Positions 2,102-17,372 of a DNA stretch of 35,841 nucleotides are shown in pieces; within the stretch, counting starts at the first letter, position 1; each line of letters begins with the position of its first letter. The position numbers and the translations under genes were made by a program. The DNA is from an uncultured Candidatus Thioglobus sp. (GTDB lineage Bacteria; Pseudomonadota; Gammaproteobacteria; PS1; Pseudothioglobaceae): contig CAJQTP010000046.1 of the NCBI GenBank assembly GCA_905620445.1, positions 1 to 35,841 on the forward strand, written 5' to 3'. The notes under the pieces were generated by a model. It was given only the letters and a program-made list of their open reading frames with translations. It had not been told where the DNA came from and did not search any database.

Positions 2102-3166
<1,065 letters not shown>

Positions 3167-3178
3167 AGTAAGATTTTA

Positions 3179-3538
3179 CTACTCAGATAAACCAGATTTT
3201 GCCTGATCTGCAATTTTTGCAAAGGCATCTTTATCAAAGATGGCAATATCAGAAAGAACTTTGCGATCAATCTCAACACCAGCTTTGTTTAAGCCATTGA
3301 TAAATTGTGAGTAGCTTAAGCCATTGTTCCTTGCCTCAGCGTTGATACGTACGATCCATAATCTACGGAACTGACGACGACGTTGACGACGGTCACGATA
3401 TGCATACTGTCCAGCTTTAATTACCGCCTGCTTAGCAACGCGATAAACTTTTGAACGAGCACCATAGTAACCTTTGGCTTTCTTTAATATTTTTTTATGT
3501 TTGGCGTGCGCCTGCACACCTCTTGAAACTCTTGCCAT
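3179..3538 (-). CDS. rplT: 50S ribosomal protein L20
   Basis: [39 protein letters not shown], canonical L20. Confidence 0.99.
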
Positions 3539-3553
3539 AGTAATACTCCTAGT

Positions 3554-3751
3554 TTAGCTGTACGGTAACATTCTTTTGACCATTGGTACATCAGCCTTCT
3601 CAATGAAGTCTGGTGAACGCAATGAGCGTTTTCTAGAAGTACTCTTCTTGGTCAGAATATGCCTCAAGTGCGAGTGTTTACTTTTGTACTGACCGCTAGC
3701 GGTCTTTTTGAAGCGCTTTGCAGCACCTCTATTTGTCTTTAACTTCGGCAT
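3554..3751 (-). CDS. rpmI: 50S ribosomal protein L35
   Basis: [42 protein letters not shown], canonical L35; tandem ATG ATG start, SD GGAG upstream inside infC. Confidence 0.98.
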
Positions 3752-4331
3752 CATTTACTCCTTCACCCTTTTCGGGTTCAATTTTTCGGGCGGCTGGCGC
3801 CTTACTTTTCTTCGATATGGGTGCTAGCATCATGCCAAGCTGGCGACCCTCCATTTTTGCACGTTGCTCTACAACGGCAAATTCTTCTGTATCCTTTTCA
3901 ATTCTATCTAACATAAGTGCGCCGATCTCTCTATGCTGCACTTCCCTGCCACGGAACCAAATAACGACTTTAACTTTGTCTCCGTTTTCTAAAAATTTTG
4001 TCAAGTTCCTAAACTTGATTTGGTAATCACCTTCCTCAGTTCCTGGACGATACTTAATCATCTTGACTTGAGTTTTTTTCTGTTTCTTCTTAGCGTCATT
4101 CTTTTGTTTCTTTAATTCATATTGAAACTTACCAAAGTCCATAACACGACAAACTGGTGGATCTGCACTTGGTGAAACTTCAACTAAGTCTAAACCGACG
4201 CTTACTGCTAATTCAAGAGCTTCTACGTTACTAAGGACTCCCATTTGCTCACCCTTGTCATTGATGACTCTGAGTGTTGGTGAACTAATTTTTTCGTTAA
4301 TCCTTGTCGTTACCTTGTTTGGTCTTTTAAT
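3729..4331 (-). CDS. infC: Translation initiation factor IF-3, with ATT start codon
   Basis: The ORF track starts at an internal ATG (4244). The frame extends upstream to CAGGAGTAATT-ATT AAA AGA CCA AAC AAG..., giving (M)[33 protein letters not shown], the conserved IF3 N-terminus with SD and AUU initiation. Confidence 0.95.
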
Positions 4332-4333
4332 AA

Positions 4334-6226
4334 TTACTCCTGATTTATTAATTCAATCAACGCCTCTATAGACATTGAACCTAGATCCTCTCCACCCCTT
4401 CGGCGAACAGAGACTTGGTTATTTTCTACTTCTCGATCACCAACAACTAAAATATAAGGATAGCGTTGCATCGAGTGCTCGCGTATTTTAAAGCCTATCT
4501 TCTCATTACGCAAGTCAGAAATGACCCTAAGTCCTTGTTTTTTTAGATTCTTCTCTACTTTTTTGCTAAATTCTTCTTGTTTTTCAGAAATATTAAGAAT
4601 AACCGCTTGAATTGGAGCAAGCCATGATGGAAACGCTCCTTCGTAATGTTCGATCAAAATTCCTGTAAATCTCTCGATTGATCCAACGATTACTCGGTGA
4701 AGCATTACGGGTGTTTGTTTGGAGCCATCTTCAGCAATATACTGCGCATCAAGCCTGCCCGGCATGGAAAAGTCAGCCTGTATTGTTCCGCATTGCCATT
4801 CACGATCTAGGCAGTCCTTTAAAACAAACTCAACCTTAGGGCCGTAAAAGGCGCCTTCACCCTCCTGAAGTTCCCAGTTAATTCCTTTTGCATCTAAGGC
4901 TTCAGACAAAGAAGCTTCAGCCTTATCCCAATCCTCGTCCGAACCAACTCGCTTTTCGGGTCTGGTAGAGAGCTTAATATCAATGTTTTCAAAACCAAAA
5001 TGCTTGTAGACTTGAAACGTAAGGTCTATAAATTTAGAAACTTCGTCTTGAATTTGATCGATTGTGCAAAAAATATGAGCGTCATCCTGAACAAAATTTC
5101 GAACCCTCATAATTCCGTGAAGCGTTCCAGAAGGCTCGTTACGGTGACACGACCCAAACTCAGCTAAGCGCAACGGTAAATCTCGATAAGACTTAAGTCC
5201 CTGCTTATAAATCTGAACATGGCCAGGGCAGTTCATCGGCTTAATCGCGTAGTCACGGTTCTCTGAATGCGTGGTAAACATAGCGTCGCCAAACTTATCC
5301 CAGTGGCCTGACTTTTCCCACATTGACCTATCCATCACCTCAGGGGTGTGGACCTCGTGGTAGTCATTATCTTTAAAAACTTGGCTCATATACTGGACAA
5401 TTATTTGATAAAGCGTCCATCCCTTAGGGTGCCAAAAAATCATTCCTGGAGACTCTTCCTGGGTATGGAAAAGGTTCTGAGTCTTACCAATCTTCCTGTG
5501 GTCTCTTTTCTCAGCCTCTTCCAAGCGATGCAAATGGGTCTGAAGGTCCTCCTTATTTTCCCAAGCAGTACCGTAAACCCTTTGAAGCATTTCATTATTT
5601 GAGTCACCGCGCCAATAAGCGCCAGCCAGCTTCATTAACTTAAACGCTTTAAGCTTACTGGTTGAAGGTACATGGGGACCACGACACAGGTCTACAAAGT
5701 CACCCTGCTTGTATAGCGATAAAGCCTCGTTAGAAGGAATCGACTCAATAATCTCTGCCTTGTAATGCTCGCCCTTTGATTTAAAAAATTTAACCGCCTC
5801 TTCACGGCTCATCTCCAATCTCTCGATCGGTAAATTCTGCTTAACAATGGCGTTCATCTTTTTTTCAATCTTTGCAAGATCTTGCTCTGAAAAACCATCT
5901 TTATAAGCGAAGTCATAATAAAAACCATTATCAATGACAGGGCCAATAGTTACCTGGGCCTTTGGATAGAGTTGTTGGGTAGCTTGCGCTAATAGGTGGG
6001 CAGTAGAATGACGAATAACTTCAAGCGCCCTCTCGTCTTTATTGGTAATAATAGCAAGAGCTGCGTCACCCTCAATCATGTAAGACGTGTCAACTATTTG
6101 ACCGTCAATCTCACCAGCAATAGCAGCCTTTGCAAGGCCAGATCCAATCGATGAGGCTACTTCTGCAACCGTTAATGCCTGGTCATAAGATTTAACTGTG
6201 CCGTCAGGCAGTGTTACATTTGGCAT
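4334..6226 (-). CDS. thrS: Threonine--tRNA ligase
   Basis: TGS domain [49 protein letters not shown]; gene order thrS-infC-rpmI-rplT. Confidence 0.99.
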
Positions 6227-6341
6227 ATCACAAGATTAAAAACAAAAAATCCATTTTACCTTGATAGCGCACTTATCTTGGTCAAAAATTGAGACTTTAA
6301 AGAACTTTTAAATGAACCTTTTAAAGGTATATTAACACCCT

Positions 6342-7514
6342 ATGAAAATCGCTCGTAAATCACCCGAACTATTAATCCTTCTAATGACTGTTGGTTCTGC
6401 TATAAGCTGGGCTGTGTGGCTTAACCTGCTTAATAATTTTGCAATTGATGAGATCGACTTTACGGGCGCAGAAATGGGAATCCTTCAAAGCCTAAGAGAA
6501 GTTCCTGGATTTTTAGCCTTTACGGTCATCTTTGTTTTGGCTTTTATTCGAGAGCAGAAGTTGGCGTACATATCTCTCGCGCTTCTTGGTGGCGGAGTAA
6601 TATTGACGGGTTTCGTTGAAACCAATATGACCTTTTATTTGGCAACAATAGTCATGTCTATTGGCTTTCATTACTTTGAAACCATTAATGGCTCATTAAC
6701 GCTTCAGTGGATTGAAAAAGATAAAACAGCAGAGTTTTTAGGGCGAGTTATTGCTACCCGATCAGCCGCATCAATCATTGCATTTAGCCTTGTTTGGGTC
6801 CTTTTTGAGCAATTTCAAGTCGCATACATGTGGCTTTATTTGATTGGTGGCGGCGTCTCTATTGCGGTCGTATTATTTTGTTGGCAGCACTTTTCGCTGT
6901 TCCCAGAAAAAGTCGTTCAGACTAAAAAAATTATTTTAAGAAAGCGCTACTGGCTCTACTATGCGCTTCAATTCATGAGCGGCGCAAGAAGGCAAATATT
7001 TGTGGTTTTTGCGGGCTTCTTGATGGTTGAAAAATTTGACTTCACGGTCGCTGAAATATCACTCTTACTGCTTGCAAATGCTGCGGTAAATATAGTTGTC
7101 GCCCCTAAAATAGGACGGCTTATTCACAAATTTGGTGAGCGCAAAGCGCTCATATTTGAGTATGTTGGGCTCACCTTTATCTTTGCTGGATACGCGTTTG
7201 TAGAGAGCAGTTACCTTGCAGTTTTCTTGTACATTGCAGACCACCTATTCTTCTCAATTGCAATCGCCCTCAAGACGTACTTTCAAAAAATTGCGGATCC
7301 CGCTGACATAGCTTCTAGCGCAGGAGTCTCCTTTACAATTAATCACATTGCAGCGGTCTTTATTCCGGTTGCTTTTGGTTTGATTTGGCTTTACTCGCCT
7401 TCATTAGTTTTCTTGGCAGGCGCTGGAATGGCAGTCATCTCACTTCTTCTTGCTTTTAATATGCCAGCCAGCCCTTCTGCTGGAAACGAAGTCTTGTTGG
7501 GTAAATTTGCTTAA
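6342..7514 (+). CDS. MFS family transporter
   Basis: 390 aa, ~12 hydrophobic segments, MFS-like loop (GRLIHKFGERKALIFEYVGLTFIFAGYAF). Confidence 0.75.
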   Translation: MKIARKSPELLILLMTVGSAISWAVWLNLLNNFAIDEIDFTGAEMGILQSLREVPGFLAFTVIFVLAFIREQKLAYISLALLGGGVILTGFVETNMTFYLATIVMSIGFHYFETINGSLTLQWIEKDKTAEFLGRVIATRSAASIIAFSLVWVLFEQFQVAYMWLYLIGGGVSIAVVLFCWQHFSLFPEKVVQTKKIILRKRYWLYYALQFMSGARRQIFVVFAGFLMVEKFDFTVAEISLLLLANAAVNIVVAPKIGRLIHKFGERKALIFEYVGLTFIFAGYAFVESSYLAVFLYIADHLFFSIAIALKTYFQKIADPADIASSAGVSFTINHIAAVFIPVAFGLIWLYSPSLVFLAGAGMAVISLLLAFNMPASPSAGNEVLLGKFA

Positions 7515-7547
7515 AATAATATAGACCATGGTGATATACTTTTCACT

Positions 7548-9878
7548 ATGAAAAAACTACTCCTACTTTTAATTCTTTCCTTCTTCTCAGCTCAAAGTCT
7601 TGCGGGTTCTTGCCCTGATGGTAGTGAGCCAGTAAAGAGTATTTCTGATGACGGCACTTATTTTGTATTCAACTGTGGCGGTGGTAATGAACAATCATCT
7701 TCATCTACTAATACTGGCAGCTGGAATGACTCAGGTCCATTAGACGAGTTGACAATTCCCGATAACTGGCAATTATTTAAATATAAAAAGACCCTAAGTG
7801 AGGCTCGCAAGAATTTTGAGGCTCTTAGTTTTACAGGATTTGGATTTGGCACTCATAGGTACATCAAAGATACTTGTATAGGTGTTCTCAAAGATTGGGG
7901 TCAATCAATGAAAGTCTACAATTCCATTAAAAAAGAGCTTGATGAAGCTACTAAATTTGGAGGTGAAGGAGCGGAGTCTAAGGATTTGCAGGGCTGTATC
8001 GATAGATTTATATACTCAACACAAAGTTCTACTGGAACCCCAGACTACATGAAAGAAATCCTTCTTCATTGGGCAAAGACTAATGCGGTTTTTATTCCTA
8101 GCGGAGTTAACGATGAAAACTGGAGTAATTATGTCTATGAGGCAGTTCAATCTTGGTCTTCTTTTGGCAGTTATTACGCGACTTTCTATGATGAATTTAA
8201 CTACAGCGATTCTGAGAGAAAGATTGTTGATGCGTATATAAAGGATAAACTTCTAAACCTCGATACCCGAAATCTAGTGTCATCCGCTCACGGTTCAGCT
8301 TGTGACCCTGATAATCTTAATAGAACTGTAGAGGGGGGGATTCAAGGAAAAATTGACCATAATAGTTGTGGCAGCTCTGTCTGGAAGACCACACTCGCTC
8401 AGCTTTTAGTTGGCCTGAGGTTAAACAATGAGGCTCTTTTTAAGAAGGGCGTAGAGAATACTAAATACCAGCTCAGCTTTTTTGATGATAGCGGAATCTT
8501 TACAACTTGGGCTCTAAAGGGTGCTAACGCTTATCACTACAGTAGCAGCGTCCCAATTATGCTGGGCGGACTCACTGAAATCTATGCCAGCGTTGGCTAT
8601 GACTTTATGGAGCACAAACTCCGCAATGGTCTGAGCGTCAAAGAGCTAATGGACAGGCAGTATGAAATCTTGCTTGACCCACATATCTTAGATGGCTATG
8701 TTAAAAGGTACCCATTAGCCTACAGGGGAGTGCCAAACTCAGTGTATATTCAGTCCTCAGCAGAGCAAATAAGAAAGGAAATTGGTATGAATTTGTTTGC
8801 TTTTGTCAGGAATCTGCCGAGATACGTTGATACTTACCGAGCTGATATTGGCAACAGTCAAGAGTTTGATAAAAAACTAGCAAGTCAACCTCAAGAAATT
8901 CGGGGAGATGTTCCGTGGATGTCTTTAGGAGCCTTCCAGCCACTTGACCCCTATTTAGTCTACATATCAGACATCAAAGAGCCAGAATCAAAGACTAAAG
9001 TCGCATCAGAGTTATCCATTTTTGAAGTTGAGGGTGATACCTTCAACTTAGCACTAGATAAAGTAGAGTTTGTTGAAACTGGCTCCTTTAAATTAGAACG
9101 TGAAGAAGAAGGGTATCTTAAGCCTTTTCAACTGCATAAAGGCCATATAAATGGTTACTTAAAAACAAAAAGTAACTGGAGCAAAAATATTGAAACCCTA
9201 GTCTATAAGCATGATAGTGTCCAAGAGCAAAAACTTGTAATCCATACAAATAGCCCAACAATAAAACCCTTAACACGGCATAGTGATTCTCTTCAGAAGA
9301 AATGTGGGTCGAAAGTAATGGAATGGGGATGGCTAAGTTTTATCAGCAAGACCAACGACATCAAGAGTGCTAGGAATCAACAATGTATATACGACTACTT
9401 TAAAGAAGCTAATGATAGAGAGGCTTTGGAATTATTCCAAGCAGTCTTAGGGGGTACGGACTCTATATTAGATTACTTGCAAACAAGTCCTGAAGAGCGA
9501 CGAATTAAAGTTGCGACCAAAGAAGAGGAAAAGCGAATTCCAGCAGACTTAGAACTACCCATTTTTGATGACGTTGAACATAAGCTAGAAGGGCAAATTC
9601 TAAAAATCAATATATTCAGCCCTAAAATGAAACCTTTAATGCGGCATTTAGCCTCTCTTCAGAGGAAATGCGGGGGGGCTTTTATAACTGGAAAAAGGTG
9701 GAATTGGCTTAGTTTTGTTAGTAGTGACTCCGATAATATTAGGAATTCTAACAACCAACAATGTCATTATGATTATTACAAATCTTCTAATGATAATGAG
9801 GCTTTTGAGTTATTTAAAGCTGTCCTAAGTGGTACTGATTCAATATTGGATTATCTTAAAGCAGAAGTTATTGAATAA
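7548..9878 (+). CDS. Secreted protein: alginate-lyase-like (alpha/alpha-toroid) central region plus two copies of a novel C-terminal module
   Basis: Signal peptide MKKLLLLLILSFFSAQSLAG; IDHNSCGSSVWKTTLAQLLVGLRLNNEALFKKG...DDSGIFTTWALKGANAYHYSSSVPIMLGGLTEIYASVGYDF resembles the N-H-W...DG...RG..A.HY pattern of alginate lyase (PL5-like) families; tandem RHxxSLQ(K/R)KCG...NQQCxYDY...GTDSILDYL modules. Confidence 0.55.
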   Translation: MKKLLLLLILSFFSAQSLAGSCPDGSEPVKSISDDGTYFVFNCGGGNEQSSSSTNTGSWNDSGPLDELTIPDNWQLFKYKKTLSEARKNFEALSFTGFGFGTHRYIKDTCIGVLKDWGQSMKVYNSIKKELDEATKFGGEGAESKDLQGCIDRFIYSTQSSTGTPDYMKEILLHWAKTNAVFIPSGVNDENWSNYVYEAVQSWSSFGSYYATFYDEFNYSDSERKIVDAYIKDKLLNLDTRNLVSSAHGSACDPDNLNRTVEGGIQGKIDHNSCGSSVWKTTLAQLLVGLRLNNEALFKKGVENTKYQLSFFDDSGIFTTWALKGANAYHYSSSVPIMLGGLTEIYASVGYDFMEHKLRNGLSVKELMDRQYEILLDPHILDGYVKRYPLAYRGVPNSVYIQSSAEQIRKEIGMNLFAFVRNLPRYVDTYRADIGNSQEFDKKLASQPQEIRGDVPWMSLGAFQPLDPYLVYISDIKEPESKTKVASELSIFEVEGDTFNLALDKVEFVETGSFKLEREEEGYLKPFQLHKGHINGYLKTKSNWSKNIETLVYKHDSVQEQKLVIHTNSPTIKPLTRHSDSLQKKCGSKVMEWGWLSFISKTNDIKSARNQQCIYDYFKEANDREALELFQAVLGGTDSILDYLQTSPEERRIKVATKEEEKRIPADLELPIFDDVEHKLEGQILKINIFSPKMKPLMRHLASLQRKCGGAFITGKRWNWLSFVSSDSDNIRNSNNQQCHYDYYKSSNDNEAFELFKAVLSGTDSILDYLKAEVIE
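9240..9484 (+). repeat. C-terminal module copy A1 (in the 776-aa protein)
   Basis: IHTNSPTIKPLTRHSDSLQKKCGSKVMEWGWLSFISKTNDIKSARNQQCIYDYFKEANDREALELFQAVLGGTDSILDYLQ; alignable with copies A2 and B by eye. Confidence 0.9.
9603..9860 (+). repeat. C-terminal module copy A2 (in the 776-aa protein)
   Basis: INIFSPKMKPLMRHLASLQRKCGGAFITGKRWNWLSFVSSDSDNIRNSNNQQCHYDYYKSSNDNEAFELFKAVLSGTDSILDYLK. Confidence 0.9.
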
Positions 9879-9912
9879 GTATTGACTCAATCATGATCTG
9901 TAAAGACTCATT
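9868..9912 (-). pseudogene. Remnant of the recJ 3' end (last 14 codons plus stop)
   Basis: Minus strand reads NESLQIMIESILIQ*, against NESLQLMIESIAIQ* at the end of intact RecJ (15678-15722); 38/45 nt identical by hand alignment, same stop TAA. Confidence 0.85.
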
Positions 9913-10019
9913 ATATTTGATTACTCTAATTATAAAGAGGAGTGAAATTTGAATTTCGAGTTAAATTAAAATATGATAACATTCGAATTTTAAAGATGTA
10001 ATCATTCGGAAATACTCCC

Positions 10020-11579
10020 ATGAACAAGGCGCCACTTACTGGACGCGAAGGCCAAAAGATAAACCTCGGTCTGCTCCTTCAAAACTCTGCCAAGCAATAC
10101 GGCTCCAAAACTTTTGTGACCCAAGCTGAAACAGGCGAGCGCTTAACCTATGCTGAATTTAATAAACTAACAAATCATATTGCCCATGGCCTCATTGACC
10201 TCGGCTTTGGTGATGAAGAGTACATCGCCATAATGCTTCCAAGCTGTATTCAGTTTTTAGCTTGCTCCTACGCACTTAAAAAAATCGGCGTGATCGAAGT
10301 GGCTATTAATAGTAATGCGCGCGGCCCCTCCCTTGCGCGCATGATTGACATGACAAAGTGCAAAATACTGATTACTTCTGGGAAGCATTTGCAGCAGTTA
10401 TCTGAGGTTTCTGAAAGCCTAAAGCACTTACAGCAAGTTATCATGATCGATAAGCAACAGAGGGCTAAAGAGCTACTTCAAAGTTTTAATATATTGCCGT
10501 GGCAGTCACTTCTTGCTCAGTCCAGCTCAAATTTTTCTTGTGACTTTAGTGACGAAGAAACAGCTGTAATTCTTTTTACTTCAGGAACTACGGGCGTATC
10601 AAAAGGTTGTGATATTCCTCACAGATCCTCAGTTCGAGCTGCAGAGTCGATCATAGAGGCATTCAGTATTACTGAGCAAGATTGTGTCTACAGCCCATAC
10701 CCTTTGTATCATGTAGGGGCAACACAGTACGACATATTGCCAGCTATGATGGTTGGCGGCCGAGTGGTTATTCGTCAGGGCTTTAGCCTATCTAATTTTT
10801 GGAGTGATGTTTGCCGCTATAAGGCAACATGGTTTATGTCGATGGGCTCTGTTCAGCAGTTGCTTTGGTCAGCAGAGCCGTGCATTGAAGAAACGCAGCA
10901 TAGTTTGCGCTTTATATGGGGAACCCCTTTGCCTGTTGACCATGACGATTTTGAATCTCGCTTTCAGCTTAAACTAGCCCGAGGCACTGGATATGGCTCT
11001 ACCGAAGCTGGCGGCGTAGCGCTTCCGCTTTTTGATAAGAGCGGGGCTGGCAAGGTTCTGGATCGTTATAAAGTAGCTATTGTAGGTGCAAACGACAATG
11101 AACTCCCTATAGGAGAATCTGGCGAGCTTGTGATTCGCCCACTTGAGCCCGCTATTATGGCATCCAAATATATTGGCATGCCTGAGGAGACAGCCAAGGC
11201 TTGGCGAAACTCATGGTTCCACTCAGGAGATTTTGCTAAATTGGATGACGAAGGCAACCTTTATTGGCTAGCACGCATGTCAGAAAGGATCCGAGTGAAA
11301 GGAGAAATGGTTTCAGCTTACGAAATTGAAGAGAGCATATTTACTCACCCTTCTGTGACTGATTGCGCAGTAATTGGTATCCCAGATGGAGCTGGAGAAG
11401 AGCAAGTTAAGGCGTTTATAACGCTTAAAGAAAATAAGACACTGACCCTGGAAGAATTACGTTTATTCTGCGCTCCTATTATTAGTCGTTTTATGAACCC
11501 TACATCACTTGAAGTACTTCAAGAAATGCCGCGAACCCAAACAGGTAAGCCCGCCAAAGCAGAACTCCAAAAAAAGTAG
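10020..11579 (+). CDS. AMP-binding acyl-CoA synthetase (crotonobetaine/carnitine-CoA ligase-like)
   Basis: ANL motifs: AVILFTSGTTGVSKGCDIPH, GYGSTEAGG, WFHSGDFAKLDDEGNLYWLARMSERIRVKGEMVSAYEIEE, PRTQTGKPAKAEL. Confidence 0.9.
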   Translation: MNKAPLTGREGQKINLGLLLQNSAKQYGSKTFVTQAETGERLTYAEFNKLTNHIAHGLIDLGFGDEEYIAIMLPSCIQFLACSYALKKIGVIEVAINSNARGPSLARMIDMTKCKILITSGKHLQQLSEVSESLKHLQQVIMIDKQQRAKELLQSFNILPWQSLLAQSSSNFSCDFSDEETAVILFTSGTTGVSKGCDIPHRSSVRAAESIIEAFSITEQDCVYSPYPLYHVGATQYDILPAMMVGGRVVIRQGFSLSNFWSDVCRYKATWFMSMGSVQQLLWSAEPCIEETQHSLRFIWGTPLPVDHDDFESRFQLKLARGTGYGSTEAGGVALPLFDKSGAGKVLDRYKVAIVGANDNELPIGESGELVIRPLEPAIMASKYIGMPEETAKAWRNSWFHSGDFAKLDDEGNLYWLARMSERIRVKGEMVSAYEIEESIFTHPSVTDCAVIGIPDGAGEEQVKAFITLKENKTLTLEELRLFCAPIISRFMNPTSLEVLQEMPRTQTGKPAKAELQKK

Positions 11580-11692
11580 TAGATTAGTCTTCATTAATAT
11601 CTAATAAAGAAACCCCTCTTTCAATAAAAACTATGGATCAATATAGTATGTATACTTTATTTAAAAGTATGGTTAATTTTAAATAACACTAC

Positions 11693-13159
11693 ATGAACGA
11701 AAACTTTCGAATTGCCCAAAAACTTGGACTCATGTTTCGACCAGAAGAAACATTGCCCCAAGACATTAAAGGATGGGCAATTAAGCAGCTCCACGCACCC
11801 TCCCCTTCCCTTGGTATTGGTAATGTTGGATCTGACGTTAAGCCCTGGCCAAAAATATTCCAACCAAGCCTAGATCAGAAGGCAGTAAAACTAAGAATCC
11901 ACTGGGAAACAATCAAAAGAGAGAGAAAGAAAAAAGGCGGCTACACTGAGAGCGCACAGCGTGCAAATGATAGGGACAACTTAATGTATGAAAAAGACAT
12001 TCTTAGATTCTCACATCGCAATGTCTATGGCTCTGACCAGCTTCGCCTTCGTCTTATGTCGTTCTGGGCAAACCACTTTACAATAGGTAGTTTTGATTCT
12101 AGGGAGGTAATTGGGCATGCAATGGAGGAGGCAATATTAGCAAATTTTAATGACTCGTTTTCAACCATGCTATACAAGGTCACCACGCATCCAGGAATGT
12201 TGAGCTACCTGGATAACCATATTAGTGCCGGACCCAATTCAAATCAAGTTAGGTGGGCCAAAGCAAACGGAGAGCAGGCTGGTCTGAATGACAACCTTGG
12301 AAGAGAGCTACTAGAACTTCATACCGTTTCACCAAGCGCAAACTATACTGAGACCGACATTAGAAATGCAGCAAAGGTTCTAGCTGGTTGGGGCATTGAC
12401 ATTAAAGGTAACCCTTTGAGTTCTTTAATGGATCAAGGTGGGACCACTAACCTTTGGGACATGTATAAAAGGAATTGGGCCGAGCCAGGCAATAAGATGG
12501 TCCTTGGAAAAACGATAGGTACAGGAAAAGGCGGCCTCAAACAGTTGACAGATTTTCTGGCCGCTCATGAGCATACGGTAATGCACCTCTCAACAAAGTT
12601 AGCCGAGCATTTTGTTAGCGATGTTCCCAATAAAACGGATGTCAATTACATTGCAAGTGCCTGGAGACAGAGCAATGGCAACCTAGACCAAATCCATACA
12701 GCAGTTATAGAAAGAGCTATTGCATCGAAGGAGCCAAAATTTCAGTTGCCGATGACTTGGCTTTTTCAAGTTTTAAGGCTGAGCAATGCCACATACTTTA
12801 TGGGCTGGAATGAGATTAATACTTCAAATAATAGCTTGAAGTTTAATATGCAGCCTATGCAAATATTTGATGAGCTAGGACAAAATTTATGGGCAGAAAG
12901 ACAACCCAATGGTTACTCAAGTAAAAAAGAGGAGTGGATGTCTGGCGAAATGTTTGAGCGGCGAATTAGGTTTGCTGACTCTATTTGGACTTCGGATAGC
13001 CAAATACAATCAACAAGTGTCATTATGGATCGAATTGGAGCAAGTAAAGAGACACGGAAGCTAGTTGAGAGTCTTCATGGAATGTCTTCAAGGTCTAAAA
13101 AGAATCAATTTATTGCACTAATGTGTAGCCCTGAACTCATGGGACTTGAAAATGCCTAA
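11693..13159 (+). CDS. DUF1800 family protein
   Basis: RLRLMSFWANHFTIG..., MLSYLDNHIS..., NLGRELLELHTVSPSANYTETDIRNAAKVLAGWGI motifs; followed by a DUF1501 gene, the usual partner. No obvious signal peptide. Confidence 0.88.
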   Translation: MNENFRIAQKLGLMFRPEETLPQDIKGWAIKQLHAPSPSLGIGNVGSDVKPWPKIFQPSLDQKAVKLRIHWETIKRERKKKGGYTESAQRANDRDNLMYEKDILRFSHRNVYGSDQLRLRLMSFWANHFTIGSFDSREVIGHAMEEAILANFNDSFSTMLYKVTTHPGMLSYLDNHISAGPNSNQVRWAKANGEQAGLNDNLGRELLELHTVSPSANYTETDIRNAAKVLAGWGIDIKGNPLSSLMDQGGTTNLWDMYKRNWAEPGNKMVLGKTIGTGKGGLKQLTDFLAAHEHTVMHLSTKLAEHFVSDVPNKTDVNYIASAWRQSNGNLDQIHTAVIERAIASKEPKFQLPMTWLFQVLRLSNATYFMGWNEINTSNNSLKFNMQPMQIFDELGQNLWAERQPNGYSSKKEEWMSGEMFERRIRFADSIWTSDSQIQSTSVIMDRIGASKETRKLVESLHGMSSRSKKNQFIALMCSPELMGLENA

Positions 13160-14303
13160 CTATAAATTAACAAGAAGAGATTTTTTAAAGGCCTCTGGAG
13201 CATCTCTGTTCTTAGCAGGTATTCCACTTCAAGGATTTACTCAAGACAAGCCGCCCGGGAAAATCTCGGTCATTATTCTTGAAGGCGGCATGGATGGGTT
13301 AAGTGCTGTTCCAGCCTTTGGTGACCCAAATTTTGAAAAGATGAGAGGCATACTTGTCCCTGAAAATTATTTAAAACTGAATTCATTTTTTGGCCTTCAC
13401 CCCTCTCTCAAAAATCTTTCCTCCTTAATGGCATCCAATAACGCCTCAATTGTTCATGCAACCTCATTTCCGTATAAAAAAAGATCACACTTTGAAGGTC
13501 AGAATTTAATTCAAGGAGGCGGCTTGACTCCGTTTTCTGAAAAGACAGGCTGGCTTGGACGCTCTTTGGAGCTTGCAAAGATTCCAGGTAGAGCCCTTTC
13601 ACTAGAAATGCCGCTGATACTTAGAGGGTATGGTGAAAACGATAATTTTTTTCCAGCAAAAATTAACAATTCTAGCAAAATAAATATTAATTTAGTTGAA
13701 AAACTGACTGCGGCGCATGGAAAGGTGGGAAGTGATGTATTTGAAAAAGTTAAGCAAAAAAGTTTACTAACTTTAGAAAATATGCCAAGAGATTCTCAAA
13801 GTTTAGCGGAGTATGCGGGCAAGGCTATGGCAAAAAAAGATGGGCCTACAGCCTCAGTTATAAGGTTGAGTGGATTTGACTCGCACGCTTCTCAAGATGA
13901 CGGGAACGGTAATGACCATGGGATTGATTTAGCAAAAATTGACGGGGTTATTGCCGCTTACAAAAGAGGACTCGGAGGCGCATGGGATAATAGCATTATT
14001 CTTACTATCACTGAGTTTGGAAGGACGGTTGCTGTCAACGGTACAAGGGGAACAGATCATGGGTACGGCTCTGCTGGAATAATTGCAGGTGGCGCAATCT
14101 CTAAATCAAGAGTTATATCTGACTGGCCGGGTCTTGCAAAAAATGAGCAGTATGAGCAGAGGGATTTAATGTCGACAATTGATTACCGATCGGTGTGTGC
14201 TGCCTGCATTGAAAAATCTTTAGGGCTGGATCACGACCTCATTGCAAACAAGGTATTCTTTGAACCAAAACTACCAAGAGTTTTTGACTACCTCTTTTCG
14301 TGA
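13152..14303 (+). CDS. DUF1501 family protein with Tat-type signal
   Basis: LTRRDFLKASGASLFLAGIPLQG Tat-like leader; VIILEGGMDGLSAVPAFGDPNF, TITEFGRTVAVNGTRGTDHGYGSAGIIAGG motifs; ATG at 13152 overlaps the DUF1800 stop. Confidence 0.9.
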   Translation: MPNYKLTRRDFLKASGASLFLAGIPLQGFTQDKPPGKISVIILEGGMDGLSAVPAFGDPNFEKMRGILVPENYLKLNSFFGLHPSLKNLSSLMASNNASIVHATSFPYKKRSHFEGQNLIQGGGLTPFSEKTGWLGRSLELAKIPGRALSLEMPLILRGYGENDNFFPAKINNSSKININLVEKLTAAHGKVGSDVFEKVKQKSLLTLENMPRDSQSLAEYAGKAMAKKDGPTASVIRLSGFDSHASQDDGNGNDHGIDLAKIDGVIAAYKRGLGGAWDNSIILTITEFGRTVAVNGTRGTDHGYGSAGIIAGGAISKSRVISDWPGLAKNEQYEQRDLMSTIDYRSVCAACIEKSLGLDHDLIANKVFFEPKLPRVFDYLFS

Positions 14304-14344
14304 CTCCCAAAGACATTTAAAGAATCTTATATTCATTTAACTAA

Positions 14345-15658
14345 ATGACAACAATCAAAATCCTTACTAGTTTTCTAATACTCAGCTGCATTATTGGTAA
14401 TGTCAATGCTGGGTATCTTGATGACTGGCCAGATGAGGCATTGTGTGGATGGCTTGATGGCGCTTCTCCACCTGAATATATTATTGAGGAAGCCAATAAA
14501 AGAGGTATCAGCTGTCCAGGAGAAGTTGCATCAAAACATTTAATTGAAAATGTGCAGTCGAGTTCTACACCTAACATTGAAATTTATGACATTATATTTA
14601 GTGATGAGATTTTGCAAGAGCTTCTGGAAATATCTCCAGAAGAGAAGGCTTCAGACTTTACTAGAAACTTTAAAAATTATCGCTTAGCCTTCATTCAAGA
14701 TGAAATAATTTGTGGCTTTAACCTCAAACGCGTTGTTTATGAGAACAAAGCCGAAGGGGAGATTGAGGGCTGGGATATGGCCTATGGCTCAATAACTTTT
14801 AAGGGGCTAAATGCTGACTTCAAAGGCGCCTGGTCAAAGAATATGGGAGGACTCTCAAGTGATTCCAGATATTTTAATGATGAAATCAATATAAAGCTTA
14901 CAAAAGATGGGCACCTTGTTGGGAAAATGGCTTATTTCACCCACACTGTAGGTAGCGATGAAGCCCCTAGGAGGCCTTTATTTATTGAACTTGAAAAACA
15001 CTCAAAATCCAAACCATTGAATTATAAAAATATTAATCTTGATAATTCTGCTGAATTCTGGATTGATGTTGAAGATTGGGCAGGCGGCGTATTGAATCTT
15101 TTCCAATGCAAAGATAGAAAAATAGAAAAACAAAAAGAAGAAGCCAAGATAGCAGCTTCTATATTACATATTTTTAAAATTGATAATGAAACGTACAAAT
15201 TAACCTTAAATAAAGCTGAATTCATGGAAACTAAGCCATTTAAATTGGAGCGTTCAGAGGAATATCTAAAGCCCTATCAACTCTTCAAAACAGTTATATT
15301 CGGCAAACTTAAGTCAAAAATTGATGGCAATAAAATGATTGATTTCACTACCTTAGTTTTTAAGCAAGATGATGGCCAGGAGCAAAAACTAGTAATCAAT
15401 TTAGATGACCGGACACTAGAATCTCTTTGGCGTCATAGTGATTCTATTCAACAAAAATGCGGAATGGGTTTAATTGATCAGTGGGGCTGGATGGGTTTTA
15501 TAACTGAAACCAGTGATCTTATGAATGCTAAGAATCAGCAATGTCATTATGATTATTTTAAAGAAGCAAGTGACACGATGGCTTGGGAGTTATTCCAAGC
15601 AGTCTTGGGCGGTACGGATTCTATATTAGATTATCTTCAAACAAATGTGAAGAGATGA
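14345..15658 (+). CDS. Secreted protein of unknown function carrying one copy of the novel C-terminal module
   Basis: Signal peptide MTTIKILTSFLILSCIIGNVNAG; N-terminal Cys motif EALCGWLDGASPPEYIIEEANKRGISC; C-terminal ~160 aa homologous to the 776-aa protein's C-terminus. Confidence 0.8.
   Translation: MTTIKILTSFLILSCIIGNVNAGYLDDWPDEALCGWLDGASPPEYIIEEANKRGISCPGEVASKHLIENVQSSSTPNIEIYDIIFSDEILQELLEISPEEKASDFTRNFKNYRLAFIQDEIICGFNLKRVVYENKAEGEIEGWDMAYGSITFKGLNADFKGAWSKNMGGLSSDSRYFNDEINIKLTKDGHLVGKMAYFTHTVGSDEAPRRPLFIELEKHSKSKPLNYKNINLDNSAEFWIDVEDWAGGVLNLFQCKDRKIEKQKEEAKIAASILHIFKIDNETYKLTLNKAEFMETKPFKLERSEEYLKPYQLFKTVIFGKLKSKIDGNKMIDFTTLVFKQDDGQEQKLVINLDDRTLESLWRHSDSIQQKCGMGLIDQWGWMGFITETSDLMNAKNQQCHYDYFKEASDTMAWELFQAVLGGTDSILDYLQTNVKR
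15394..15649 (+). repeat. C-terminal module copy B
   Basis: INLDDRTLESLWRHSDSIQQKCGMGLIDQWGWMGFITETSDLMNAKNQQCHYDYFKEASDTMAWELFQAVLGGTDSILDYLQ; the ttattccaagcagtctt.gg.ggtacgga.tctatattagatta stretch is nearly identical to copy A1. Confidence 0.9.
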
Positions 15659-15677
15659 CTTGAGTCAAAAATTTTAG

Positions 15678-17372
15678 TTACTGAATAGCTATTGACTCAA
15701 TCATAAGCTGCAAAGATTCATTGCCTCTAAATGAATTAACGTTTAACTTATAAGCAACCTTTACTTGTTTCGTTTCAAGCTTGCCCTGGAAAAAAGCAAT
15801 GCCCTCAAAAATCGAACTAGCGCCAACAAGTTTTAGAGTGCACTTAAGATGCTTTTCACCAACAATTTTTTGCTCTATTAGCTCAAAGTTGCCATAAAAG
15901 ATTGGCTCTTCAAAACCCTGGCCCCATGGGGATGCCTTTCGAAGAAGTTCTGCATTCTTAAGCGTTATTTCTGAAGCCTCTAACTTTCCATCCGTCATTA
16001 GCTCAATGATTGGCTTCTTGCCCTCGAGATGTTTTTTTATTGCCTCTGAAAAAGCATCACTAAACTTCTCAAAGCTCTCTGGCGAAAGTGCCAAGCCGGC
16101 CGCCATCGCGTGACCGCCAAACTTATCAATTAGGCCTGGGTTATCGCGATCAACCAGGTCTAGCAAATCTTTTATGTGCACGTCAGGTATTGAGCGGATT
16201 GAGCCTTTTAATACTTTGCCTGATTTTGCAAAAACAGCGCACGGGCACTGATACGTTTCTTTGAGCTTCCCTGCAACAATGCCAACAATACCTTCATGCC
16301 AGGTCTCGTCATATAAAACGATTGCAAACTGACTCTCATCAATTGACTGACTCTCGACAATGGCTAAAGCCTCATCCTGCATTCGGGTCTGCTCTTCACG
16401 CCTTTTAACATTGAACTCTTCAAGCGTTTGAGCGTACCTTCTTGCGTCATTCATATCTTCAGATAAGAGGCAGCGGATACCCTGTGATATGTCGCTCAGC
16501 CGGCCTGCCGCATTAATTCTAGGAGCCACCGTAAATCCGAGGTCGGATGCTTGCAGCGTTTCGACAGGACGCTTAGTAAGCTCAAGTATCGCTAGAATGC
16601 CTTTTGAGCAGAGTTTTTGACGAATGCGCTTAATTCCCTCATTAACTAGAATGCGATTGTTCTGATCCAGTTTTACGACGTCTGCAACGGTTCCAAGAGC
16701 AACAAGGTCAAGGAGTTCACGAAGATCTGGAACCTGGATGTTGTTCTCTTCAAAATACCCCTTACCAACCAGGTGAGTCTTAAGCGCTGAAAACAGATAA
16801 AAACAAACGCCGACGCCTGCTAAATTTTTAGAGGGAAAGTCACAGCCTCGTAAATTCGGGTTAATTATTGAGTTTGCATCAGGAAGAACTTTAGGAGGTA
16901 GGTGGTGGTCGGTAATGATAACGTCAATGTCAAGTGACCTAGCGAGCGCAGCGCCTTCATTACTGGATATACCATTGTCAACGGTAATAATTAGGTTTGG
17001 ATTTTTATCGGTCTTTGCCTCTTGAACAATTTCTGGGCTTAAGCCGTATCCATGCTTAAATCGGTTTGGAACCAAAAAGTCAACGTGCTTTGCTCCCATT
17101 AACCTAAGAGCCTTTATTGCTACAGCGCTTGCTGTTGCGCCGTCCGCATCAAAGTCTCCAACGATGAGTATGCGCTGGTCTTCAAGAATGCACTTTTCAA
17201 GAAGGTCAAGCGCAATGTTAAGTTGATCAAAGCTTGGCTTAAGGAGGCCTGGAAGCGCCATTGAAAGCTGTGATTCAGAAACGGCTCTTGCCGCATAGAC
17301 CCTCTTAAGAATTACAGGTATATCCTCAGAGTAGGACTCAAACAATGAATTGTCAAGCTCTCTAGTCAGCAC
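15678..17372 (-). CDS. recJ: Single-stranded-DNA-specific exonuclease RecJ
   Basis: LIVGDFDADGATASAVAIKALR, ITVDNGISS, DVIITDHHLPP, NPNLRGCDFPSKNLAGVGVCFYL, FGGHAMAAGL motifs. Confidence 0.98.
   Translation of the reverse strand: MLTRELDNSLFESYSEDIPVILKRVYAARAVSESQLSMALPGLLKPSFDQLNIALDLLEKCILEDQRILIVGDFDADGATASAVAIKALRLMGAKHVDFLVPNRFKHGYGLSPEIVQEAKTDKNPNLIITVDNGISSNEGAALARSLDIDVIITDHHLPPKVLPDANSIINPNLRGCDFPSKNLAGVGVCFYLFSALKTHLVGKGYFEENNIQVPDLRELLDLVALGTVADVVKLDQNNRILVNEGIKRIRQKLCSKGILAILELTKRPVETLQASDLGFTVAPRINAAGRLSDISQGIRCLLSEDMNDARRYAQTLEEFNVKRREEQTRMQDEALAIVESQSIDESQFAIVLYDETWHEGIVGIVAGKLKETYQCPCAVFAKSGKVLKGSIRSIPDVHIKDLLDLVDRDNPGLIDKFGGHAMAAGLALSPESFEKFSDAFSEAIKKHLEGKKPIIELMTDGKLEASEITLKNAELLRKASPWGQGFEEPIFYGNFELIEQKIVGEKHLKCTLKLVGASSIFEGIAFFQGKLETKQVKVAYKLNVNSFRGNESLQLMIESIAIQ

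What the first reader, a model, noticed from the sequence alone, without database searches (positions are those of the whole stretch)
9868..9912. Displaced remnant of the recJ 3' end, 5.8 kb from intact recJ
Directly seen: behind the 776-aa gene the minus strand encodes NESLQIMIESILIQ*, against NESLQLMIESIAIQ* at the end of intact RecJ (15678-15722). By hand, 38/45 nt are identical and the stop is in the same place. Both copies lie in the same orientation and both sit immediately after the same C-terminal module. The 9868-15680 interval (CoA ligase, DUF1800, DUF1501, 437-aa protein) is therefore bounded by direct repeats. Inference: this segment arrived or was duplicated by recombination at the recJ 3' junction, leaving the old recJ end as a fossil.
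Basis: partly seen in the sequence, partly recalled or inferred. Interest (0 to 1): 0.8.

Follow-up and report, generated by a model that had tools for sequence, protein, structure and literature searches.

The report
Recombination scar carrying a recJ tail
A 47-base copy of the end of the repair gene recJ sits behind another gene because that gene once lay directly against recJ in some genome, and two alternative versions of this variable stretch were later spliced end to end; it is a clear scar of a known kind of gene-island shuffling in ocean bacteria, not a new system.

Summary
Window 9866-9912 repeats the recJ 3' end (40/47; E=4e-9 genome-wide), in the same orientation and behind the same C-terminal module. 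The remnant is 46/47 identical to the recJ end of the closest relative (G010). Its first 11 nt overlap the 776-aa gene's last codons and stop, the same 11-nt convergent overlap that slot genes have with intact recJ in G010 and G015. So the 776-aa gene once abutted a recJ. The genus is Ca. Pseudothioglobus; thrS and recJ are neighbours across the family. In this genus the gap holds exchangeable content: MFS-[secreted gene]-recJ (G015), MFS-CoA ligase (G010), MFS-DUF1800-DUF1501-437aa-recJ (most). The window stacks these. At 9913 a recJ tail meets sequence that in G010 follows MFS directly. Divergence inside MFS (from ~7211) and an affinity switch inside recJ (~15980) mark homologous crossovers. 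Best reading: haplotype MFS-P776-recJ was joined illegitimately to haplotype MFS-CoA ligase-...-recJ. Which was resident is not resolved. Known kind; low-moderate interest.

The parts
9866..9912 (-). recJ 3'-end remnant (last 14 codons and stop of a recJ, NESLQIMIESILIQ*)
   Evidence: 40/47 to own recJ, 46/47 to G010 recJ
9868..9878 (.). 11-nt overlap between the 3' end of the 776-aa ORF (..VIE*) and the recJ remnant frame; same overlap seen with intact recJ in G010 and G015
9912..9914 (.). joint without homology between the recJ tail (left) and the MFS/CoA-ligase intergenic sequence (right)
7548..9878 (+). 776-aa secreted protein gene (P776): genus-wide leader, alginate-lyase-like body (inferred through a homologue), two C-terminal modules
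8976..9488 (+). first C-terminal module of the 776-aa gene
9594..9869 (+). second C-terminal module; its last part (9840 on) is G010-like
7211..7514 (+). 3' end of the MFS gene with an excess of window-private, mostly synonymous sites: left crossover tract
9914..10019 (+). intergenic sequence that in G010 lies about 32 bp after the end of the MFS alignment, upstream of the CoA ligase
10020..11579 (+). acyl-CoA ligase (AMP-binding); same place after MFS in G010, elsewhere in other relatives
11693..13159 (+). DUF1800 gene, usual content of the slot
13146..14303 (+). DUF1501 gene, usual content of the slot
14345..15658 (+). 437-aa protein gene (P437) with one C-terminal module (from about 15128), convergent with recJ
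15678..17372 (-). intact recJ
15681..15980 (-). 3' ~300 bp of recJ whose affinity differs from the rest of the gene: right crossover tract

Best explanation
The remnant is the seam of an illegitimate joint between two alternative versions (haplotypes) of one variable slot between thrS-MFS and recJ. Haplotype A was MFS-P776-recJ, with P776 ending 11 nt inside recJ. Haplotype B was MFS-CoA ligase-DUF1800-DUF1501-P437-recJ. DNA of one entered a cell with the other; one end crossed over by homology (in MFS near 7211, or in recJ near 15980) and the other end was joined without homology at 9912/9914, so A's recJ tail now abuts B's MFS/CoA-ligase intergenic sequence. Shown: the remnant, its G010-like sequence, the joint, each flanking piece of B in other genomes, the two affinity switches. 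Inferred: the event order, the mechanism, and haplotype A itself (known only through a G015 analogue with a different gene). Not resolved: which haplotype was resident.
For: Remnant 46/47 to the G010 recJ end and continuous with the P776 C-terminal end. Same 11-nt overlap of a slot gene with intact recJ in G010 and G015. G015 has MFS, a 435-aa secreted gene with the same leader and a weak alginate-lyase match, then recJ, and no other slot genes. G010 C39 has MFS, 32 bp, then the equivalent of 9914-11651, and its post-MFS intergenic resembles that of G002. Most relatives have MFS-DUF1800-DUF1501-P437-like-recJ. Outgroups have recJ-thrS adjacent. MFS private sites 29/301 after 7211 against 64/2874 before (permutation 0 of 2000), 22 of 29 synonymous. 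recJ switch near 15980 (Fisher 4e-6). DUF1800-P437 block 95-96% to G002/G009 while the left flank is 87-90%. Remnant absent from all relative loci scanned.
Against: No genome with P776 itself between MFS and recJ was found; the G015 gene shares the leader and perhaps the fold class but no detectable body sequence. The joint shares at most 1-2 nt, less than the 3-10 bp usual for this mechanism (PMC3240628). G010 is split exactly in this slot, so its DUF1800 state is unknown. The order of events is ambiguous.
Confidence: 0.7

Rival explanations
1. Mirror case 1 (a sub-case of the best explanation): haplotype B was resident and a fragment MFS3'-P776-recJ tail entered it, crossing over in MFS near 7211 and joining illegitimately at 9913.
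For: G010, the closest backbone relative, has the empty MFS-CoA ligase junction with a G002-like intergenic; MFS changes affinity at 7211; P776 plus tail is absent from relatives.
Against: Needs a separate event for the recJ switch at 15980 and a donor whose recJ tail is nearly identical to G010 although its MFS end is not.
Confidence: 0.35
2. Mirror case 2 (a sub-case of the best explanation; the first reader's order): haplotype A was resident and CoA ligase-DUF1800-DUF1501-P437-recJ3' entered, crossing over in recJ near 15980 and joining illegitimately inside the old recJ tail.
For: The remnant is the tail expected for this backbone (46/47 to G010) while the present recJ 3' 300 bp are not G010-like; the DUF1800-P437 block is recently shared with G002/G009.
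Against: Needs an earlier event that put P776 beside MFS (switch at 7211) and displaced the MFS-CoA ligase arrangement seen in G010.
Confidence: 0.35
3. Ectopic copying inside one genome: P776 already lay after MFS and copied the 3' end of the C-terminal module of the recJ-adjacent gene, overrunning 36 nt into recJ.
For: Identity of P776 to the G010 slot gene jumps from about 60-65% to 100% at 9840, a plausible switch point inside the module.
Against: The far end still has to be joined without homology; the same module end would also result from exchange in haplotype A.
Confidence: 0.15
4. Amplification or assembly chimera.
For: The genome is partial (54%, 52 contigs) and may be a single-cell assembly; relatives' contigs often break in this slot.
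Against: Only one recJ was found in this assembly, so a P776-recJ molecule would not be expected beside the P437-recJ one in a single cell; direct orientation, whereas 85% of such chimeras are inverted (PMC1855051); no long shared word at the joint for an assembler to cross.
Confidence: 0.1
5. A conserved terminator or other element shared by both loci rather than a recJ fragment.
For: Both copies lie at convergent gene ends.
Against: No terminator-like site at the remnant; the repeat matches recJ codons and ends abruptly where the flank changes to another locus; no such second copy in relatives.
Confidence: 0.03

Closest known systems
Replacement flexible genomic islands of aquatic prokaryotes (Lopez-Perez et al. 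2014, PMC4033161)
   Same: One chromosomal slot with different gene content in related genomes, and peaks of mostly synonymous substitutions in the flanking core genes
   Different: Small slot (roughly 1-8 kb between MFS and recJ) of secreted-protein and enzyme genes; here two versions are stacked rather than swapped
Homology-facilitated illegitimate recombination (described in PMC3240628)
   Same: One homologous crossover plus one joint without homology, giving insertion of linear DNA
   Different: Inferred from one natural sequence; joint shares at most 1-2 nt; little resident DNA lost

Membership tests
Replacement flexible genomic island | Same position between core genes in related genomes, different gene content | tested here: met
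Replacement flexible genomic island | Peak of mostly synonymous substitutions in flanking genes | tested here: met
   (MFS side, 22 of 29 synonymous); affinity switch in recJ
Replacement flexible genomic island | Near-identical gene blocks shared across diverged backbones | tested here: met
   DUF1800-P437 block 95-96%, left flank 87-90%
Replacement flexible genomic island | Genes for exposed cell structures | tested here: inconclusive
   N-terminal leaders suggest secretion; surface exposure not tested
Homology-facilitated illegitimate recombination | One end joined by homologous crossover | tested here: inconclusive
   affinity switches in MFS and recJ are consistent; which, if either, belongs to this event is open
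Homology-facilitated illegitimate recombination | Other end joined illegitimately, usually with 3-10 bp shared | tested here: inconclusive
   joint at 9912/9914 has at most 1-2 nt shared; joints without homology are also reported
Homology-facilitated illegitimate recombination | Occurs by uptake of linear DNA | not testable with these tools
   uncultured organism; competence genes not examined
MDA (single-cell amplification) chimera | Joint absent from native DNA | not testable with these tools
   no reads available

The most novel reading that the evidence does not exclude
The recJ 3' end is a recurrent breakage or joining point for slot genes in this genus: genes evolve to end inside recJ, so a move of a slot gene drags a recJ tail along, leaving scars that record the history of the slot.
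Probability: 0.08. Interest if true: 0.5.

Novelty: new member of a known kind. Interest (0 to 1): 0.28.

Why it matters
It is an unusually legible scar: a 47-nt tag shows which neighbour a gene had before, and together with empty sites in relatives it lets the build-up of a small variable slot in an uncultured marine lineage be read step by step. Replacement islands are usually described as clean swaps; this one shows how versions can end up stacked.

Tried and rejected
Chance similarity: rejected (E=4e-9). Terminator element: no terminator-like site at the remnant. Other remnants: none in about 65 relative loci. Donor of P776: none in the genus (only bodies of about 30% identity) and none in viral contigs; the joint sequence was not found in viral contigs. 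P776 had no solved-structure sequence relative, and its single-sequence model was too poor to use (pLDDT 38.6), so no fold search was run. CoA ligase divergence (95% to both G010 and G023) does not tell which haplotype was resident.

Full report
Observation. The direct repeat 9866-9912 / 15676-15722 is real: 47 nt, 85%, same orientation, same stop position. Searched against the window's whole assembly (906,769 bases, 52 contigs, 54% complete), the recJ end region has only these two matches, the remnant at E=4.2e-9.

What the repeat resembles. Compared with the recJ ends of 19 same-genus genomes, the remnant is closest to G010 (46/47), then G023 (44/47), and only 40/47 to the window's own recJ. 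In G010 the match runs on from recJ into the end of the neighbouring gene (9860-9912, 98%), and identity to that gene is about 60-65% before 9800 and 95-100% from 9840. In G010 and G015 the slot gene ends 11 nt inside recJ; P776 ends with the same 11-nt overlap with the remnant. So P776, or at least its 3' end, once lay against a recJ.

What follows the repeat. Bases 9914-10019 and the CoA ligase to 11651 are contiguous in G010:C39, where they start 32 bp after the end of the MFS alignment. The G010 post-MFS intergenic (GCGAAACCCATCACTCT) resembles that of G002 (GCGAGGCTCATCACTCT), where DUF1800 follows, while the window's own post-MFS sequence is different and leads into P776. About 7508-9913 is therefore extra relative to G010.

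The slot. Titles of close matches name Candidatus Thioglobus/Pseudothioglobus and SUP05 relatives. In the wider family recJ and thrS are usually immediate neighbours; two divergent members (L191, L193) have recJ-MFS-thrS; most of the genus have MFS-DUF1800-DUF1501-P437-like-recJ. G015 has MFS, one 435-aa secreted gene, then recJ. The slot is thus an accretion of alternative contents, and several relatives' contigs end inside it.

Recombination boundaries. Inside MFS, sites where the window differs from both G010 and G002 rise from 64/2874 (4337-7210) to 29/301 at 7211 (permutation 0 of 2000), 22 of the 29 synonymous. Inside recJ, sites shared with only one of G010 and G023 switch near 15980: 8 against 20 in the 3' 300 bp, 145 against 51 in the rest (Fisher 4e-6). 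Boundary peaks of mostly synonymous changes are the published mark of replacement-island exchange (PMC4033161). The DUF1800-P437 block is 95-96% identical to G002/G009 although the left flank is 87-90%.

Interpretation. The window joins haplotype A (MFS-P776-recJ tail) to haplotype B (MFS/CoA ligase intergenic-CoA ligase-DUF1800-DUF1501-P437-recJ) at 9912/9914, with at most 1-2 nt in common. One homologous and one illegitimate end is the pattern of homology-facilitated illegitimate recombination; joints usually share 3-10 bp but joints with none are reported (PMC3240628). Each order leaves the other boundary to a second event. The empty G010 site favours the first, the G010-like remnant together with the non-G010 recJ end favours the second; I hold them about equal. 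Their two confidences in the rivals list are shares of the best explanation, not additions to it.

The gene carried. P776 has the genus-wide leader, an unassigned body and two modules. It has no significant Pfam match itself, but its relative in G024 (29% over residues 168-381, E=4e-17) matches Alginate_lyase PF05426 above the curated cut-off, and the G015 slot gene matches it weakly, below the cut-off. A secreted alginate-lyase-like enzyme is an inference. The structure prediction failed.

Limits. One genome, no reads, no conspecific genomes; G010 is split in the slot, so haplotype B is seen whole only in the window.

Noticed in passing
window 7548-7691; also G000:C19, G019:C4, G040:C1, G042:C4 and others: A nearly invariant N-terminal leader (MKKLLLLLILSFFSAQ..AGSCPDGSEPVKSISADGTYFVYNCGG) heads many secreted proteins in the genus with quite different bodies (alginate-lyase-like, FG-GAP-like by eye, nuclease plus Sel1 and others), often in tandem arrays; it looks like leader-anchored domain shuffling.
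   Followed up: partly
L078 (G009) 2598-4848: recJ and the Lcl gene in G009 are split over several frames with stops, as is its MFS gene; assembly error or decay not distinguished.
   Followed up: no
L078 (G009) about 9018-9065: A leftover start of a P776-type leader lies just upstream of DUF1800 in G009, another possible scar in the same slot.
   Followed up: partly
L155-L158, upstream of the CoA ligase: In G041, G017, G015 and G008 the CoA ligase lies just after a sequence that reads like a tRNA gene 3' end (by eye, not run through ARAGORN), so it has moved within the genus.
   Followed up: no
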